Source of the DNA: Deltaproteobacteria bacterium
Lineage (GTDB): Bacteria > Myxococcota > Myxococcia > Myxococcales > Anaeromyxobacteraceae
Reading direction: 5' to 3'
Assembly: GCA_016214955.1 (NCBI GenBank)
Contig: JACRMN010000007.1
Coordinates: forward strand, 62,001 to 126,000
Length of the DNA stretch: 64,000 nt
This document shows, in pieces, positions 5,368 through 14,703 of the stretch. A program made the translations under genes and the position numbers. Under the pieces are notes generated by a model, which did not search any database, was not told the origin of the DNA, and saw only the letters and a program-made list of their open reading frames with translations. The number at the start of each line of letters is the position of its first letter. The stretch's first letter is position 1.

Positions 5368-5500
5368 CCCGGGACTGCCCGCATCTTGACCAGGCGCGCG
5401 CTTCCTTTTCGGGCAAGGAGGGGCATGCTGGTGAGATGTGCCCCGTCCCGGTGGCCCGCTTTCCGGGCAGGGGGCTTGCACACGCGGAGCCTCGGGTCCC

Positions 5501-8500
5501 ATGCGCCTCCTCCTCCAGCACGAGAGCCTCTACGCCTATCCCTCGCCCGCGACCCTGGGGCCCCACGAGATCCGGCTCCGGCCGGCCCAGCACGCCCGGG
5601 CGCGCATCGAGAGCTACTCGCTCACGGTGACCGAGCCCGGGGAGCTGCGCTGGCTGCAGGACCCCTTCGGCAACCACGTCGCCCGCCTCGCCTTCAAGAA
5701 GGGCACGAGGCTGCCCGAGCTCCGGCTGCTGGTGGAGATGGCGGTGGACATCCGGCCGGTGAACCCGTTCGACTTCTTCGTGGACGACCGCTGCCAGGAG
5801 TCGCCCTTCACCTATCCGGAGGAGCAGCGGGCCGACCTGGCGCCCTTCCTCACCCTCGACGAGCCGGCCCTGGCGGGCGGGCCGCTCCTGCGGGAGTTCC
5901 TGGCCGCCCTGCCCTCGCACGGCAACACCGTCTCGATGGTGGTGGAGCTCAACCGGCTGGTAAAGGAGCGGGTGAAGTACGTGGTCCGCGAGGAGGCGGG
6001 CATCTGGACGCCGGAGGAGACGCTGCGGGAGGGGCGCGGCAGCTGCCGCGACTCGGCGGTGCTGCTCATGGCGGTGCTGCGCTCCCGGGGCCTGGCCTCC
6101 CGGTTCGCCTCCGGCTACCTGGTGCAGCTCACCGACGAGGGCATGCTCCCCGACGAGCCCCGCGGCATCGGGCGCGACGTGGTGGACCTGCACGCCTGGG
6201 CCGAGGTGTTCCTGCCGGGCGCCGGCTGGGTGGGCCTCGACGCCACCAGCGGCCTGCTCACCGGCGAGGGGCACATCCCGCTCGCCTGCGTGGCCCGCCC
6301 GGCGCTGGCCTCGCCGGTCACCGGCACCAGCGACGTGGGCGCCACCCGCGTCACCTTCGGCATGAAGGTGGGCCGGCTGGGCCACGAGCCCCGCCCCACC
6401 ACCCCCTACGCCGAGGAGACATGGGAGGCGCTGCTCGCCGCCGGAGACCGGGCCGACGAGGCCCTGGCCGCCGAGGAGCTCACGCTCACGGTGGGCGGCG
6501 AGCCCACCTTCAACTCGCGGGAGCACCCGGAGGCGCCGGAGTGGAACGGCGAGGCGCTCGGCCCCACCAAGTGGAGCCAGGGGCTGCGGCTCGCCGACGA
6601 GCTGCGCAAGCGGCTCTGCCCCGGGGGGCTCATCCTCTCGCGCACCGGCAAGACCTATCCCGGCGAGGCGCTGCCCCGCTGGGCGCTCGACGTGGTGGGG
6701 CGGCGCGACGGCGCGGCGCTGGAGGCGGCGCCGCCCGCGAAGCCGCGCCCGGCGACGCTGGAGGCGGCCCACGAGCTGGCCTTCGCGCTGGCCGCCAGGC
6801 TGGGCGTGGCCCCTGCCGTCCACCCGGCCTACGAGGACCCCTGGCACTTCGTCCGCCAGGAGGCCGGCCTTCCCGCCGGCCTCGACCCCCTGGAGGAGAC
6901 CGACCTCGGCGACCCCGCCGAGCGGCTCCGCCTGGCGCGGGTGCTGGACCACGGCCTGCGGCGCGAGGTGGCCTACGTGCTGCCGCTCTCGCGCGGCAAC
7001 CCGAGCTGGAAGACCGACCGCTGGCGCTTCCGCCGCGGCCACCTCTTCCTCCTGCCGGGCGACTCGCCGGCCGGCCTGCGCCTGCCGCTCGGCGCCCTGG
7101 GCGGCCCGCCCCCGGCGCCGGCGCCCACGCTCGAGACCCAGCCGCCCGACCCGCGGCTCGAGGAGCTGCGCAAGGCGCGGGAGAAGGCCGAGAAGGAGGC
7201 GGAGAAGGAGGGGCGCCAGGAGCAGCTGAAGGCCGCGGCCGAGGCGGCCCGCTGGGGCTCGCCGGTGCGCACCGCGCTGGTGCTGGAGCCGCGGGGCGGG
7301 GAGCTCTTCGCCTTCCTGCCGCCGCTCCCCAGCGCCGCCGACTTCTTCCTGCTGGCCGACGCCATCCAGTCCACCGCCGCGGCCCAGGGCCTGACGGTGC
7401 GCTTCGAGGGCTACCCGCCGCCCTGGGGGCCGGAGCTGTTCCGCATCACCGTCACCCCCGACCCGGGCGTGCTGGAGGTGAACCTGCCGCCGACGCGCTC
7501 CTCGCGCGAGCACCACCAGCTCATGGCCGCGGTCTTCGAGGCCGCGCTCCACGCCGGCCTGCACTCCGAGAAGTACCTGCTCGACGGGCGCATGGCCGGC
7601 TCGGGCGGCGGCAACCACCTCACCCTGGGCGGCCCCGAGGCGCTCGGCAGCCCCTTCGTCGTCCGGCCCGACGTGCTGGCGAGCCTGGTCACCTTCTTCC
7701 AGCACCACCCCTCGCTCTCCTACCTCTTCACCGGCCTCTTCGTGGGCCCCACCTCGCAGGCGCCGCGGGTCGACGAGGCCCGCCACGACAGCCTCTACGA
7801 GCTGGAGCTGGCGCTGCGCCGCGCCTTCGACCGCGGCCAGCCGGCGCCGCCCTGGCTGGGCGACCTGCTCTTCCGCCACCTGCTGGTGGACGTGACCGGC
7901 AACACCCACCGCGCCGAGATCTGCATCGACAAGCTCTTCGACTGGCGCACCGCCCACGGACGCCAGGGGCTGGTGGAGCTGCGGGCCTTCGAGATGCCGC
8001 CCCACCCGCGCATGGCCGAGGCGCAGATGGTGCTGGTGCGGGCGCTGGTGGCCGCGTTCTCGGGCCAGCCCTACCGCCACGGCCTCGTCCGGCGCGGGGC
8101 CGAGCTGCACGACCGCTTCCTCCTGCCCACCTGGCTGTGGCGCGACTTCGAGGAGGTACTGGCCTACCTGGCGGGCCGCGGCCTCGAGCTGCCCGCCGAG
8201 GCCTACCGGCCCTTCGTGGAGCTGCGCTGCCCGGTGGCCGGCCGCATCCAGGCCGGCGGCGTGACCCTGGAGGTGCGCAACGCCATCGAGCCCTGGCACG
8301 TGCTCGGAGAGGAGCCCGCCGGCGGCGGCACCTCGCGCTACGTGGACTCGTCGATGGAGCGGCTCGAGCTGCGCGCCGAGGGGCTCGCGCCCGGGCGGCA
8401 CCAGGTGCTGGTGAATGGCCTCACCCTGCCGCTGCGGCCCACCGGCGCCGGCGACGAGCAGGTGGGCGGGGTGCGCTTCCGCGCCTGGTGCCCGCCCCAC

Positions 8501-8806
8501 AGCCTCCACGCCCACATCGGCATCCACCACCCGGTGCGCTTCGACCTCTGGGACCGCTGGGGGCGCCGGGCCGTGGCCGCGGGCGCGTACCACGTCTGGC
8601 ACCCCGAGGGCCGGGCCTTCGGCAGCCCGCCCCTCACCCGCTTCGAGGCCCAGGCGCGCCGCGCCCAGCGCTTCACCGCCGAGGGGCCGCTGCCCTGGCC
8701 CTTCGTGCCCCGCGAGGCCCGGGCCCACCCCGAGCAGCCCTGCACCCTCGACCTGCGCCGCTTCCCCGGCGACCGGCCCATGCCCGAGCCGGAGGAGGAG
8801 GTCTAG
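5501..8806 (+). CDS. Transglutaminase-DUF2126 fusion protein
   Basis: About 1101 residues. The N-terminal part is a bacterial transglutaminase-like module: the N-terminal beta domain (MRLLLQHESLYAY), then a core with Cys near 183 (GRGSCRDSAVLL), His near 230 (DLHAWAEVF) and Asp near 245 (GLDATSG). The rest is DUF2126, with TVGGEPTFNSREH, ILSRTGKTYPGEALPRWAL, TPDPGVLEVNLPP, SGGGNHLTLGG and VDVTGNTHRAEICIDKLF. From memory, DUF2126 has been proposed to be a circularly permuted glutamine-synthetase-like amidoligase; that is a prediction. The ATG at 5501 starts the conserved beta domain. This is the first gene of a five-gene operon; the next start is 5 bp downstream, with GGAGGAGGAG inside the end of this gene as its ribosome site. 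A cytoplasmic location is inferred from the lack of a signal peptide. Confidence 0.9.
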   Translation: MRLLLQHESLYAYPSPATLGPHEIRLRPAQHARARIESYSLTVTEPGELRWLQDPFGNHVARLAFKKGTRLPELRLLVEMAVDIRPVNPFDFFVDDRCQESPFTYPEEQRADLAPFLTLDEPALAGGPLLREFLAALPSHGNTVSMVVELNRLVKERVKYVVREEAGIWTPEETLREGRGSCRDSAVLLMAVLRSRGLASRFASGYLVQLTDEGMLPDEPRGIGRDVVDLHAWAEVFLPGAGWVGLDATSGLLTGEGHIPLACVARPALASPVTGTSDVGATRVTFGMKVGRLGHEPRPTTPYAEETWEALLAAGDRADEALAAEELTLTVGGEPTFNSREHPEAPEWNGEALGPTKWSQGLRLADELRKRLCPGGLILSRTGKTYPGEALPRWALDVVGRRDGAALEAAPPAKPRPATLEAAHELAFALAARLGVAPAVHPAYEDPWHFVRQEAGLPAGLDPLEETDLGDPAERLRLARVLDHGLRREVAYVLPLSRGNPSWKTDRWRFRRGHLFLLPGDSPAGLRLPLGALGGPPPAPAPTLETQPPDPRLEELRKAREKAEKEAEKEGRQEQLKAAAEAARWGSPVRTALVLEPRGGELFAFLPPLPSAADFFLLADAIQSTAAAQGLTVRFEGYPPPWGPELFRITVTPDPGVLEVNLPPTRSSREHHQLMAAVFEAALHAGLHSEKYLLDGRMAGSGGGNHLTLGGPEALGSPFVVRPDVLASLVTFFQHHPSLSYLFTGLFVGPTSQAPRVDEARHDSLYELELALRRAFDRGQPAPPWLGDLLFRHLLVDVTGNTHRAEICIDKLFDWRTAHGRQGLVELRAFEMPPHPRMAEAQMVLVRALVAAFSGQPYRHGLVRRGAELHDRFLLPTWLWRDFEEVLAYLAGRGLELPAEAYRPFVELRCPVAGRIQAGGVTLEVRNAIEPWHVLGEEPAGGGTSRYVDSSMERLELRAEGLAPGRHQVLVNGLTLPLRPTGAGDEQVGGVRFRAWCPPHSLHAHIGIHHPVRFDLWDRWGRRAVAAGAYHVWHPEGRAFGSPPLTRFEAQARRAQRFTAEGPLPWPFVPREARAHPEQPCTLDLRRFPGDRPMPEPEEEV

Positions 8807-8811
8807 CGGCC

Positions 8812-10479
8812 GTGGGCTGGGGGGAGGAGATCGCCGAGCAGGACGAGCGGGTGCGGCGCGCCGGCCTGGAGATCTGGCTGGGCGCCGAGCCCACCTTCAC
8901 GCTACGCGAATCCCAGGATCCTCCCTGGCTCTGGCAGGCGGAGGGCGGCGACAAGGAGATGCGCGCCGCCGCCTTGCTCGCCGACCTGGCGCCGCGCCTC
9001 GGCGCCGCCCGCCTGCAGCGGGCGCCGGGGCGCCACTTTCCCGAGGAGCCGGCGCCGCGCTTCTGCCTGGGGGCGCTCCTGCGCCGCGGGCCTCCCGCGC
9101 CGGCCGCGGGCGGGCTCGACGGCCCTCCCCTCCCCGCCCCCGCGCCCGGCCCGGACGAGCGCTGGCTCACCGTGACGCCCGACCCGGGCGTGGTGGAGGT
9201 GAACCTGGCGCCCTCGCCCGACCTCGCCACCTTCGCCGCCGACGCCCAGGCCTGCTACCGGGCGGCGGCCGCGGCCGGCCTCTCGCCGGTGCGCTTCCGC
9301 TACAACGGCCAGGTCTCCGACTCGGGCGGCGGCGGACAGCTCACCCTGGGCGGCCCGTCGCCCGAGGCCAGCCCCTTCTTCCGCCGGCCCCAGCTCCTGC
9401 CGCGGCTGGTGCGCTACCTCCACCACCACCCGTCGCTCTCCTACGCCTTCTCCCCCGACTGCGCCGGCAGCGCCGGCCAGGGGCCCCGGCCGGACGAGGG
9501 GGTGCGGGAGATCTTCGACGAGCTGCCGGTGGCCCTCGACCGGCTGGCGGCCCGCGGCGACGACCTCTCGCCGGCCGAGCTGTGGTCGGCGCTGGCGCCC
9601 ATGCTGGTGGACCCCTCGGGCAACTCGCACCGCGCCGAGCTCAACGTCGAGAAGCTCTGGAACCCGCACCTTCCCGGCCGCGGGATGCTGGGGCTGGTGG
9701 AGCTGCGTGCGCTGCGCATGCCGGGCACCCCCGCCCGCCTCACCGCCGTGGCCGCGCTCTTCCGGGCGCTGGCGGCGCGGCTGGCGACGCGCCCCTTCGA
9801 GGAGCCGCTGCGCGACTGGGGACGCACCCTGCACGACCGCGCCGCCCTGCCCTTCTTCCTGGCCCGCGACCTCGTGGGCGTGCTGCAGGACCTCGACCAC
9901 CAGGGCTTCGGGCTGGGCCCGCTGCTCTCGGACGAGCTCACGGCCGAGGAGGCGCCGCTGGCCCTGGTGCCGCTGGGCGGCGCCCGGCTGGAGCTGCGCC
10001 CGGCGCTGGAGTTCTGGCCGCTCCAGGGCGACGTGGCCTCGCAGGAGCGCAGCACCGCGCGGCTGGTGGACGCCAGCTCGGCGCGCCTCGAGCTGCGGCT
10101 CGACACCGGCGGCGGCGAGGTGGGGCGGCTCTCGGCCGGCGGCTGGGAGCTGCCGCTGCAGCAGGTGGCCCGCGGGCTCCACCTGGCCGCCGTGCGCTGG
10201 CGCACCTTCGCGCCGTCGCCCGGCCTCCACCCCGGTCTCCCGGCCCACGACCCGCTCCGGCTCTGCTGGGAGCGGGGCGGCGAGGCGCGGGAGGTCCTGC
10301 TCCACGGCTGGCGCCCGCAGGGCGGCGGCTACGACGGCCTCCCCGCCGACGGCGCCGAGGCCGCCCGGCGCCGCGCCGAACGGGTGCAGGTCCGGAGCCT
10401 GCCCCCGCCGGCGGTGCAGCGCGCCCCGCCGGGCCCGGCCCTGACGCTCGATCTCCGCCGCCTCCCCCTGGCAAGCTGA
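8812..10479 (+). CDS. Second DUF2126 protein (stand-alone)
   Basis: About 555 residues, starting at GTG 8812 behind a GGAGGAGGAG ribosome site. It lacks the transglutaminase module but repeats the DUF2126 motifs of its upstream neighbour: LGAEPTFT, VTPDPGVVEVNLAP, SGGGGQLTLGGPSP, RYLHHHPSLSYAF, VDPSGNSHRAELNVEKLWNPH and GLVELRALRMPG. The shared core is clear, but spacing and many residues differ, so this is an old duplication. The pair could form a heteromeric ligase or act on different substrates. It is cotranscribed with the ATP-grasp and alpha-E genes downstream. Confidence 0.87.
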   Translation: MGWGEEIAEQDERVRRAGLEIWLGAEPTFTLRESQDPPWLWQAEGGDKEMRAAALLADLAPRLGAARLQRAPGRHFPEEPAPRFCLGALLRRGPPAPAAGGLDGPPLPAPAPGPDERWLTVTPDPGVVEVNLAPSPDLATFAADAQACYRAAAAAGLSPVRFRYNGQVSDSGGGGQLTLGGPSPEASPFFRRPQLLPRLVRYLHHHPSLSYAFSPDCAGSAGQGPRPDEGVREIFDELPVALDRLAARGDDLSPAELWSALAPMLVDPSGNSHRAELNVEKLWNPHLPGRGMLGLVELRALRMPGTPARLTAVAALFRALAARLATRPFEEPLRDWGRTLHDRAALPFFLARDLVGVLQDLDHQGFGLGPLLSDELTAEEAPLALVPLGGARLELRPALEFWPLQGDVASQERSTARLVDASSARLELRLDTGGGEVGRLSAGGWELPLQQVARGLHLAAVRWRTFAPSPGLHPGLPAHDPLRLCWERGGEAREVLLHGWRPQGGGYDGLPADGAEAARRRAERVQVRSLPPPAVQRAPPGPALTLDLRRLPLAS

Positions 10480-11957: not shown

Positions 11958-11961
<4 letters not shown>

Positions 11962-12947
11962 TCTCCCGGGTCGCCGATCACTGCTTCTGGCTGGGCCGCT
12001 ACCTGGAGCGGGCCGAGAGCACCGCCCGCGTCCTCTCCGTCACCCGCAACCTGGCCCTCGACGCCGGGCTCACCGCGGCCCAGTGCTGGCTGCCGGTGGT
12101 GATCGTGGCCGGCGAGGAGGCCCGCTTCGGCTCCCGCTTCGGCCCCGAGGCGGCCGAGGACGGCGACCGGGTGCAGGCCTACCTCACCTGGGACCAGGAG
12201 ACGGGCGTCTCCATCCAGCGCTCGGTGGCGGCGGCGCGCGACAACGCCCGCTCCATCCGCGAGGTGGTGAGCCTGGAGACCTGGGAGGCGCTCAACGAGC
12301 TCCACCTCTGGCTGGGGAGCCAGGCCGGCTGGAGCGAGTACGGCGAGGACCGGCACGCCTTCTACCGCCGCGTCCGCCAGGCGGTGCAGGGCATCCACGG
12401 CATCGCCCGCGGCACCATGCTCCACGACGACGCCCTGCACTTCGTGGAGCTGGGCGTGCGGCTGGAGCGGGCCGGGCAGACCGCCCGCATCCTCGACGTG
12501 CACCACCACGCCATCCGCCGCATCACCGACGCCAGCGCCGCCCCCGAGACCGGTCTCTGGCTCTCGCTCCTGCGGGCCTGCTCCGGCTTCGAGCCCTACA
12601 TGAAGCGCTGCCAGGGGCGCATCGACCGCGAGGCGGTGGTGCGCTTCCTGGTGCTGGAGGCGGAGTTCCCGCGCTCGGTGCGCTTCTGCATCCACTCCGC
12701 CTGGGAGCGGCTGGCCTCCATCCGGCCGCCCGAGGCCGAGGGGCTGCCCGGGGCCCGGAGCGTCGCCCGGCTGGCGGAGCTGGTGCGCTGGGTCGACGGC
12801 TGCGGCGCCCTGCTCGAGGGGGAGCGGCTCCACGAGCTGCTGACCCACGTGGTGGACGAGACGGCCTCCATCTGCGACTGGATCGGGCGGGAGCTCCTGG
12901 GGTACGAAGTGGCGGCCCAGTCGCAGTCGCAGCCCTCCCCTCCGTGA
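11958..12947 (+). CDS. Alpha-E (DUF403) domain protein
   Basis: 329 residues of the all-helical alpha-E family. Diagnostic motifs are [22 protein letters not shown] at the start, [50 protein letters not shown] and [15 protein letters not shown]. No enzymatic activity is known for the family; genomic association suggests it works with the permuted ATP-grasp and DUF2126 ligases, perhaps as a scaffold or substrate binder. It starts inside the stop codon of the ATP-grasp gene and is followed 16 bp later by the amidotransferase-transglutaminase fusion. Confidence 0.92.
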
Positions 12948-12963: not shown

Positions 12964-14703
12964 ATGCCCAACCTCCTCGCGATGTCCTTCGAAGGCGAGC
13001 TCGCGCCCTCCTTCGACCTGCGCTGTCTCCACGACGGCGCGGCCGCGCCCGACGGCTGGGGCATCGGCTACTACCCCGGCGGCGAGCCCTCGGCGGCGGT
13101 GCTCAAGGAGCCTGCGCCGCCGCCGGGCTCCATGCGCTCGGAGCTGGTGAAAGCCTGGGAGCACCTCGAGACCTCGCTGTTCGTGGTCCACATCCGCAGC
13201 GCCACCTGGGGCGCGGTCAGCGACGCCAACACCCAGCCCTTCCACCGCGCCTGGGGCGGCCGGGACTGGCTCTTCGCCCACTCCGGCAGCCTGGTGCAGC
13301 GCCCCACCCCGCGGCCCGGCGGCCCCTTCGAGCCGGTGGGCTCCACCGACACCGAGCTCGTCTTCTGCGAGCTCATGAACCGCTTCGCCGAGCGGGGCTG
13401 GCGCAGCCTGGCCGAGGCCGACCTGGAGGTGGTGCGCGGCTGGCTCCAGGCCTTCGACGAGCTGGGCAACCTCACCTCGGTGCTCGCCGACGGCCACGAC
13501 CTGTGCGTGTACGCCGGCCGGAGCGGCAGCCGGATCTTCCTCTGCGAGGTGCTGCCGCCCTACGAGCGCTTCGCGCTGGGCGACCGCGACCTGGAGGTGG
13601 ACCTGTGCCGCCGGGGCGTCAAGGCGCGCAAGGGCGTGGTGGTCTCCTCCTCGCCCCTCGAGATCGACGGCGAGCCGGCCGCCGACCGCTGGCAGGCGGT
13701 GCCGCCCGGCCACCTGGTGGTGGTGCGCCAGGGGGCGGTGCGCGCCGAGGTGGCCCCGGCCGGCGTCTCGGCCTCGCAGCTGGCGCTGCCGGGGACGCGC
13801 CGCGTGGTCATGGCCCGGCCGCGCAAGGCCGAGGTGCGCCGCTTCGAGGTCACCCACCGCACCAGCTACCGCTACGAGAGGCCGGTGGAGCAGAGCACCC
13901 ACCTCTTCCGGCTGGCCCCGGTGCACGACCGGCTCCAGACCCTGCTCTCGCACGAGATGACGGTCACCGTGGACGGCCAGTGGCGCGAGTACGAGGACGT
14001 CTTCGGCAACCGCACCCGCCGGCTGCACGTCGAGACGCCGTTCACCGAGATGGTCATCGAGGCCCGCTCCCGGGTGGAGCTCCTCGACACCGACCCGCTC
14101 TCCTACAAGCCGCTGCGGGCCCGGACCGAGATCCCGGTGGTGTGGATGCCCTGGCAGCGCCAGGTGCTCCAGCCCTTCCTGCTGCCCCGCGAGCTGCCGG
14201 AGAGCGAGCTGGAGGAGCTCAGCGACTACGCCATGAGCTTCGCGGTGCGGAACGACTACGACATCCTCGACACCCTGCTCGACATCAACGGCACCATCTA
14301 CCGCGAGTACAAGTACACCCCGGGCGCCACCACCATGGCCACCACGCCGTTCGACATCTACGCCAACCGGCGCGGCGTCTGCCAGGACTTCACCAACCTC
14401 TTCCAGCTCCTGGCCCAGCTCCTCGGGCTGCCGGCCCGCTACGTCTGCGGCTACGTCTACACGGGGCCCAGGCACGAGAACCAGCGGCAGGCCGAGGCCT
14501 CCCACGCCTGGGCCCAGGTGTACCTGCCCGAGGTGGGCTGGAAGGGCTTCGACCCCACCAACGGCATCCTCACCCAGACCGAGCACATCCGCGTGGCGGT
14601 GGGGCGCAACCACCGCGACGCCACCCCCACCGGCGGCACCATCTACGTGGGCGGCGCCGGCGAGACCTTGGAGGTGTCGGTGCGGGTGGAGCCGATGCCG
14701 TAG
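12964..14703 (+). CDS. Class II glutamine amidotransferase-like domain fused to transglutaminase
   Basis: 579 residues with two parts. Residues 1 to ~275 look like the NTN-hydrolase class II amidotransferase fold: MPNLLAMSF, DGWGIGYYPGG, FVVHIRSATWG, DANTQPFHR, FAHSGSL and the STDTELVF loop. The usual catalytic Cys2 is replaced by Pro, so glutaminase activity by the standard mechanism is not expected. Residues ~285-579 are a bacterial transglutaminase-like module with N-terminal beta domain (RRFEVTHRTSYRYERPV) and a Cys-His-Asp triad near C472 (GVCQDFTN), H513 (SHAWAQVYL) and D528 (GFDPTNG). It closes the five-gene operon, so the operon carries two transglutaminases. No strong ribosome site precedes the ATG. 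The downstream gene is convergent, with only 3 bp between stops. Confidence 0.87.
   Translation: MPNLLAMSFEGELAPSFDLRCLHDGAAAPDGWGIGYYPGGEPSAAVLKEPAPPPGSMRSELVKAWEHLETSLFVVHIRSATWGAVSDANTQPFHRAWGGRDWLFAHSGSLVQRPTPRPGGPFEPVGSTDTELVFCELMNRFAERGWRSLAEADLEVVRGWLQAFDELGNLTSVLADGHDLCVYAGRSGSRIFLCEVLPPYERFALGDRDLEVDLCRRGVKARKGVVVSSSPLEIDGEPAADRWQAVPPGHLVVVRQGAVRAEVAPAGVSASQLALPGTRRVVMARPRKAEVRRFEVTHRTSYRYERPVEQSTHLFRLAPVHDRLQTLLSHEMTVTVDGQWREYEDVFGNRTRRLHVETPFTEMVIEARSRVELLDTDPLSYKPLRARTEIPVVWMPWQRQVLQPFLLPRELPESELEELSDYAMSFAVRNDYDILDTLLDINGTIYREYKYTPGATTMATTPFDIYANRRGVCQDFTNLFQLLAQLLGLPARYVCGYVYTGPRHENQRQAEASHAWAQVYLPEVGWKGFDPTNGILTQTEHIRVAVGRNHRDATPTGGTIYVGGAGETLEVSVRVEPMP

What the first reader, a model, noticed from the sequence alone, without database searches (positions are those of the whole stretch)
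12964..13850. Class II amidotransferase-like domain lacking the catalytic N-terminal Cys
The fold motifs are intact, but residue 2, normally the catalytic Cys, is Pro (MPNLLAMSF). No upstream in-frame Cys supplies an alternative N-terminus in the 16-bp spacer. The domain may bind a glutamine- or amide-like group without hydrolysis, or act through another nucleophile. Fusion to a transglutaminase, which itself handles glutamine side chains, makes this intriguing.
Basis: partly seen in the sequence, partly recalled or inferred. Interest (0 to 1): 0.6.

Follow-up and report, generated by a model that had tools for sequence, protein, structure and literature searches.

The report
Disarmed amidotransferase domain fused to transglutaminase
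A glutamine-cutting enzyme domain has lost its cutting residue, and part of the machinery around it, throughout a whole family of bacterial proteins, yet it keeps its fold and most of its likely binding pocket and stays joined to a transglutaminase whose active site looks intact.

Summary
ORF 12964-14703 (579 aa) is a GATase_4 (class II amidotransferase, Ntn fold) domain joined to a transglutaminase. Residue 2 lies exactly where the catalytic Cys lies and is Pro. This is a family trait: 0 of 81 fused homologues has Cys there (Pro 60, Leu 5, Ser 13, Thr 3), against 30 of 30 unfused relatives. The likely glutamine-holding Arg78 and Asp129 stay invariant (65 of 65 in the window's branch), as does the transglutaminase triad (80 of 80). 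dN/dS of 0.07-0.31 shows the domain is maintained, not decaying. Its neighbours form the CP-ATP-grasp/Alpha-E amidoligase operon, in which many other bacteria carry a separate Ntn protein, Anbu; no locus examined has both. Best reading: a non-hydrolytic glutaminyl/gamma-glutamyl-binding or scaffolding module that serves the transglutaminase. The unexpected part is a sister branch (20 loci) in which the Cys position is always Ser or Thr, even behind N-terminal extensions; 11 of 20 keep the rest of the pocket. That branch may hold active Ser/Thr-type enzymes. No activity was tested.

The parts
12964..14703 (+). fused protein, GATase_4-like Ntn domain plus transglutaminase, 579 aa
12964..13761 (+). 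GATase_4-like domain, residues 1-266
   Evidence: Pfam PF13230, E 1e-71; model superposes on 1te5 Z 31.8, 244 aligned, rmsd 1.9
12967..12969 (+). Pro2 codon at the place of the catalytic Cys
   Evidence: C2 in 30/30 unfused, 0/81 fused
13195..13197 (+). Arg78, likely glutamine carboxylate-binding Arg (role recalled from GlmS)
   Evidence: 65/65 in P/L branch, 76/81 overall
13282..13284 (+). Ser107 at the place of the oxyanion Asn (HSG for HNG)
   Evidence: N 30/30 unfused, 9/81 fused, 0/65 in P/L branch
13348..13350 (+). Asp129, likely glutamine amino-binding Asp (role recalled from GlmS)
   Evidence: 81/81 fused, 30/30 unfused
13846..14079 (+). Bact_transglu_N, residues 295-372
   Evidence: PF08379 E 4e-21
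14266..14556 (+). Transglut_core, residues 435-531, triad Cys473 His514 Asp530
   Evidence: PF01841 E 5e-17; triad 80/80
11958..12947 (+). Alpha-E gene, ATG overlaps the stop of the ATP-grasp gene
   Evidence: PF04168 E 2e-68; start codon
10492..11961 (+). circularly permuted ATP-grasp ligase gene
   Evidence: PF14403 E 4e-159
5438..8806 (+). transglutaminase plus DUF2126 (glutamine synthetase-like amidoligase) gene, start codon uncertain
   Evidence: PF09899 E 6e-300, PF01841, PF08379
8803..10479 (+). second DUF2126-family gene, start codon uncertain
   Evidence: PF09899 E 1e-98

Best explanation
The N-terminal domain of the window protein is a maintained pseudo-glutaminase: an Ntn-fold class II amidotransferase domain that can no longer make or stabilise the thioester. 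It most likely still holds the head group (alpha-amino and alpha-carboxylate) of a glutaminyl or gamma-glutamyl compound through Arg78 and Asp129, and so guides or regulates the fused, catalytically intact-looking transglutaminase that breaks or makes the amide bond. It acts inside an amidoligase pathway in which a CP-ATP-grasp ligase, Alpha-E and DUF2126 ligases would make the amide-linked product. Shown here: the family-wide loss of the nucleophile, the loss of the oxyanion Asn and RGG, the conservation of Arg78/Asp129 and of the transglutaminase triad, purifying selection, and the gene context. Inferred: ligand binding, the identity of the ligand, and the work shared with the transglutaminase. 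A pure scaffold role is the nearest rival.
For:: 0/81 fused homologues with Cys at position 2. C2 30/30, N108 30/30, R25 29/30 and G26/G27 30/30 in unfused relatives, lost in the fused ones; R78 76/81 and D129, G108, H106 81/81 kept; in the P/L branch 34 of 266 positions are invariant, among them R78, W82, G83, N89-F93, H106, G108, T128, D129, E131. Position 91 changed from His (H92 29/30 in relatives) to an equally invariant Gln (65/65), which looks like a retuned pocket rather than decay; dN/dS of the domain 0.07-0.31 over 23 close pairs; two-domain model with pLDDT 87 and pTM 0.87. Z 20.7 (rmsd 2.8, 208 residues) to EgtC C2A with its natural substrate (4zfl) and 21.5 (rmsd 2.9, 220 residues) to GlmS C1A with glutamate (3ooj), i.e. 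solved cases, by their titles, in which Cys-less class II domains still hold ligand; amidoligase gene context; CP-ATP-grasp and Alpha-E in 61 of 80 loci as held, and in 30 of 36 with full 9 kb flanks.
Against: No ligand was identified and no coordinates could be measured. Asp129 sits among other invariant residues (T128, E131, C135) and may be kept for the fold. Asp129 and Arg78 are invariant in the Cys-bearing relatives as well, so their conservation does not by itself prove binding. The domain changes faster than its partner: mean identity to the window 61.0% against 68.4% for the transglutaminase in the P/L branch, 33.3 against 56.2 in the S/T branch, and higher dN/dS than the transglutaminase in 16 of 23 pairs. 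Six of 20 S/T-branch members lack Arg78. The roles of Arg and Asp are recalled from GlmS, not tested.
Confidence: 0.5

Rival explanations
1. Pure scaffold: the dead Ntn domain only shapes, dimerises or docks the transglutaminase (for example onto Alpha-E or the ATP-grasp ligase); the pocket residues are kept for folding.
For: Conserved two-domain packing suggested by pTM 0.87; Asp129 lies in a generally invariant stretch; five of 81 fused proteins lack Arg78 and keep the fusion.
Against: Arg78 and Gln91 are 65/65 in the P/L branch where chemistry is gone; the invariant residues include most of the pocket by homology.
Confidence: 0.33
2. The domain is catalytic with another group: after Met removal the N-terminal Pro amine acts as a base or nucleophile.
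For: Pro2 in 60 of 65 P/L-branch proteins; Met before Pro is usually removed (recalled).
Against: Leu2 replaces Pro in the Corallococcus-type proteins (5 of 65; more); Met before Leu is normally kept (recalled). The oxyanion Asn is absent in 65/65.
Confidence: 0.04
3. The sister S/T branch (not the window protein) is an active Ntn hydrolase with Ser or Thr in place of Cys; the window's branch is its fully dead relative. This concerns another branch and can be true beside the best explanation.
For: Ser or Thr at the aligned place in 20 of 20, of which 8 have no start codon directly before it, so start-site bias does not explain it; 11 of 20 keep R78, N107, G108 and D129 together. The S and P groups are each one side of a branch (SH-aLRT 95 and 99). 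The S/T model puts residue 2 on residue 1 of GlmS.
Against: Ser and Thr are common second residues (recalled); 7 of 20 lack Asn107 and 6 of 20 lack Arg78; extended N-termini would need processing; the RGG motif is not kept. The S/T model is weaker (pLDDT 71.5, pTM 0.48).
Confidence: 0.25
4. Residue 2 is an artefact of a wrong start or a sequencing error.
For: None found.
Against: No in-frame Cys in the 40 upstream codons; same residue and register in independent genomes.
Confidence: 0.01

Closest known systems
GATase_4 / YafJ-type class II amidotransferases (1te5, P. aeruginosa)
   Same: same fold over the whole domain (Z 31.8, 244 residues, rmsd 1.9, 30% identity); same N-terminal register; Arg and Asp of the pocket
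   Different: no Cys2, no oxyanion Asn, no RGG; fused to a transglutaminase
EgtC, gamma-glutamyl Ntn hydrolase of ergothioneine synthesis (4zfj, 4zfk, 4zfl)
   Same: fold (Z 20.7-20.8, rmsd 2.7-2.8, 206-208 residues); a Cys2-to-Ala EgtC has been solved with natural substrate (title of 4zfl)
   Different: EgtC keeps Cys2; the window protein scores 48 bits against the EgtC cut-off of 218.65
beta-lactam synthetase (1jgt, 1mb9)
   Same: a class II amidotransferase-like domain fused to another enzyme and, as recalled, without glutaminase activity
   Different: its partner is an asparagine synthetase-like domain (recalled); weaker structural match (Z about 11, rmsd about 4, about 180 residues)
Anbu operon: ATP-grasp, Alpha-E, transglutaminase, Anbu (PMC6376114, PMC5666114, passages read)
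   Same: CP-ATP-grasp, Alpha-E and transglutaminase together with an Ntn-fold protein
   Different: the Ntn part is a fused, Cys-less amidotransferase-like domain, not separate Anbu; no locus examined carries both
transglutaminase-like protein 3isr of Cytophaga hutchinsonii
   Same: matches the C-terminal half (Z 26.5, 264 residues, rmsd 2.4)
   Different: no amidotransferase-like domain

Membership tests
class II glutamine amidotransferase (GATase_4) | Ntn fold and family profile | tested here: met
   PF13230 241 bits, cut-off 23; 1te5 Z 31.8, rmsd 1.9, 244 aligned
class II glutamine amidotransferase (GATase_4) | N-terminal catalytic Cys | tested here: not met
   Pro2; 0/81 fused against 30/30 unfused
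class II glutamine amidotransferase (GATase_4) | oxyanion Asn of HNG | tested here: not met
   Ser107; 0/65 in the P/L branch, 9/81 overall, 30/30 unfused
class II glutamine amidotransferase (GATase_4) | glutamine-binding Arg and Asp | tested here: met
   R78 and D129, 65/65 in the P/L branch; their role is recalled
class II glutamine amidotransferase (GATase_4) | glutaminase activity | not testable with these tools
   needs protein
transglutaminase-like superfamily | Cys-His-Asp triad in family context | tested here: met
   C473, H514, D530 in 80/80 rows that cover them, 81 rows examined; PF01841
transglutaminase-like superfamily | transamidation or amidase activity | not testable with these tools
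   needs protein
CP-ATP-grasp/Alpha-E amidoligase operon | adjacent CP-ATP-grasp and Alpha-E genes with a transglutaminase | tested here: met
   61 of 80 fused loci as held
Anbu operon | Anbu gene | tested here: not met
   0 of 80 fused loci; the genome's one PF00227 match is on another contig, C19, than the operon, C1
EgtC equivalog | TIGR03442 score over the cut-off | tested here: not met
   48 bits, cut-off 218.65
Ser/Thr-type Ntn hydrolase (sister branch only) | Ser or Thr at the nucleophile position | tested here: met
   20/20; not the window protein, which has Pro
Ser/Thr-type Ntn hydrolase (sister branch only) | free N-terminus and activity | not testable with these tools
   8 of 20 have no start codon directly before the residue

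The most novel reading that the evidence does not exclude
The fused family is an evolutionary path by which a thiol Ntn amidotransferase became first a Ser/Thr-type enzyme (sister branch, some members with propeptides) and then, in Myxococcota and some Acidobacteriota, a non-catalytic glutamyl-binding module that fills the Ntn place of the amidoligase operon otherwise held by Anbu and hands its ligand to the fused transglutaminase.
Probability: 0.2. Interest if true: 0.75.

Novelty: new variant of a known kind. Interest (0 to 1): 0.45.

Why it matters
The Alpha-E/ATP-grasp/transglutaminase operon is widespread and its product is unknown; tests of YbAnbu found no peptidase activity (PMC6376114, abstract and passages). 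A lineage that has a fused, disarmed amidotransferase domain instead of the separate Ntn protein gives a handle on the substrate: whatever its pocket binds is a candidate for the product of the pathway. The sister branch offers a direct test of whether a class II amidotransferase can work with Ser or Thr instead of Cys.

Tried and rejected
Wrong start or frameshift: rejected.

Decay of a useless domain: rejected by dN/dS 0.07-0.31 over 23 pairs and by strict residue conservation.

Catalysis by N-terminal Pro: unlikely, because Leu replaces it in the Corallococcus-type proteins.

Membership in EgtC: rejected by score.

Sigma-54/NtrC promoter before the operon: the pattern gave 8 matches where 4.6 were expected (8 of 100 shuffles reach 8), and none on the + strand before the operon. 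The idea came from NtrC control of a related Burkholderia cluster (PMC5491218, passages).

Mutual exclusion of Anbu and the fusion: in the 60 Alpha-E-selected loci 27 have Anbu, 5 the fusion, 28 neither and 0 both. With independence only about 2 double loci would be expected, and the groups differ in taxonomy, so this is suggestive only.

What fills the Ntn place in the 28 'neither' loci was looked at but not resolved.

Literature: full-text searches found no description of this fusion; the key paper (Iyer et al. 2009) is not held and was not read, so it may mention it. PMC2588565 (passages) describes the transglutaminase-ligase fusion family of the DUF2126 kind, not this one.

Rows dropped: the tree used 23 of 65 P/L rows, 20 S/T rows and 15 of 30 controls; it warns that the control and P branches are long. 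The 80 loci are the best 80 of 192. Loci overlap with those (for example L188 reads like L108), so their counts are not added to the 81. The 60 loci were picked by hand down the ranked lists. Of 35 further loci meant to be read for their start besides L278, L283 gave no N-terminus.

Full report
Observation. The window lies in a 5.3 Mb genome (G000 contig C1); close matches include contigs titled Anaeromyxobacter. The ORF at 12964-14703 encodes 579 residues: GATase_4 (residues 1-266), Bact_transglu_N (295-372) and Transglut_core (435-531). It starts MPNLLAMSF. The 40 codons open in frame before the ATG hold no Cys.

Is the missing Cys real and general? A scan of genome contigs with the whole protein kept 80 loci of 192. 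Their N-termini share one register. Together with the window, 0 of 81 has Cys at position 2: Pro 60, Leu 5, Ser 11, Thr 2 and 3 gaps. The 3 gap rows are L105 Thr, L111 Ser and L112 Ser when read upstream, giving Ser 13 and Thr 3. A second sample, the whole-genome search of Myxococcota (34 of 195 genomes matched), was read at 30 loci, L228-L257, the window among them: all Pro or Leu. By contrast 30 of 30 unfused relatives (29 from Pseudomonadota genomes, one from the phylum of L097's planctomycete, L225) have Cys2. The closest unfused relative met, a 260-residue protein in L278 about 33% identical, has Cys2 and HNG.

What else changed? In the alignment of 81 fused and 30 unfused domains, the oxyanion Asn is 30/30 in the unfused and 9/81 in the fused (Ser 40, Ala 25, Gly 3, Lys 3, Gln 1); the RGG motif (29/30, 30/30, 30/30) is gone. 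Kept are H106, G108 and D129 (81/81) and R78 (76/81; the 5 exceptions are all in the S/T branch). The assignment of Arg and Asp to glutamine binding, and of Asn to the oxyanion hole, is recalled from GlmS work. The transglutaminase triad is 80/80 in the rows that cover it. So the chemistry is lost selectively. In the 65 Pro/Leu proteins 34 of 266 positions are invariant, and position 91 changed from His to an invariant Gln.

Selection. Over 23 pairs of close relatives dN/dS for the domain is 0.07-0.31. The domain is maintained, though its dN/dS is above that of the transglutaminase in 16 of 23 pairs.

Structure. AlphaFold2 gave pLDDT 87 and pTM 0.87 for the window protein. The first half superposes on 1te5 (Z 31.8, rmsd 1.9, 244 residues), GlmS (1xff Z 21.6, rmsd 3.0, 220) and EgtC (4zfk Z 20.8, rmsd 2.8, 206); the second half on 3isr (Z 26.5, rmsd 2.4, 264). 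Residue 2 is the first residue aligned to residue 1 of GlmS. Solved Cys-less mutants of relatives carry ligand according to their titles (3ooj, 4zfl), which shows that binding without the Cys is possible in this fold.

Two branches. A tree of 58 domains separates unfused (100), S/T (95) and P/L (99) groups, each one side of a branch (quick method; long branches are flagged). P or L never occurs with Asn107 (0/65). This suggests a Ser/Thr-type active site in part of that branch, unproven. The S/T model is reliable only for the first domain, which superposes on the same structures (1te5 Z 29.9, rmsd 2.6, 248 residues).

Context. Upstream on the same strand are a transglutaminase-DUF2126 gene, a second DUF2126 gene, CP-ATP-grasp and Alpha-E. 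CP-ATP-grasp and Alpha-E lie in 61 of 80 fused loci as held, and in 30 of 36 with full flanks. The classical form of this operon carries Anbu, another Ntn protein (PMC6376114 and PMC5666114, passages). In 60 loci chosen by Alpha-E, 27 carry Anbu, 5 the fusion, 28 neither, 0 both; the 80 fused loci carry no Anbu. In 24 genomes with the fusion there is one Alpha-E each, and no proteasome-family match lies on the same contig as Alpha-E. The fusion therefore stands where an Ntn protein stands in the other operon type, though taxonomy confounds the exclusion.

Mechanism. The best-supported reading is a non-hydrolytic glutaminyl/gamma-glutamyl-binding module serving the transglutaminase. The loss of chemistry, the retained residues, the selection and the context are shown; binding, ligand and coupling are inferred. 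Scaffold is the nearest rival.

Novelty. The parts are known; a family-wide disarmed GATase_4 domain fused to a transglutaminase with an intact triad was not found in the searches listed, but the main survey of these operons (Iyer 2009) could not be read.

Noticed in passing
L003 and L032 (this genome, contig C5, one gene), L012-L017, L019, L028: A second Cys-less amidotransferase-like family in the same bacterial family: proteins starting MG(A/T)L(V/A/L)A, with Gly at position 2 and HDG instead of HNG. Of 26 paralogue loci read, 13 have Cys2 with HNG, 10 have Gly2 with HDG, 3 could not be read; so loss of the Cys goes with loss of the Asn here too.
   Followed up: partly
window 5438-8806 and 8803-10479: Two DUF2126-family genes overlap by a few bases; the second matches mainly the later half of the DUF2126 profile.
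   Followed up: no
L161 and L169: Loci with Anbu that also carry a DUF2126 gene and a second region matching the ATP-grasp query close by.
   Followed up: no
28 of 60 Alpha-E loci, for example L132, L136, L143: Alpha-E operons with neither Anbu nor the fusion; in some no transglutaminase was detected beside Alpha-E.
   Followed up: partly
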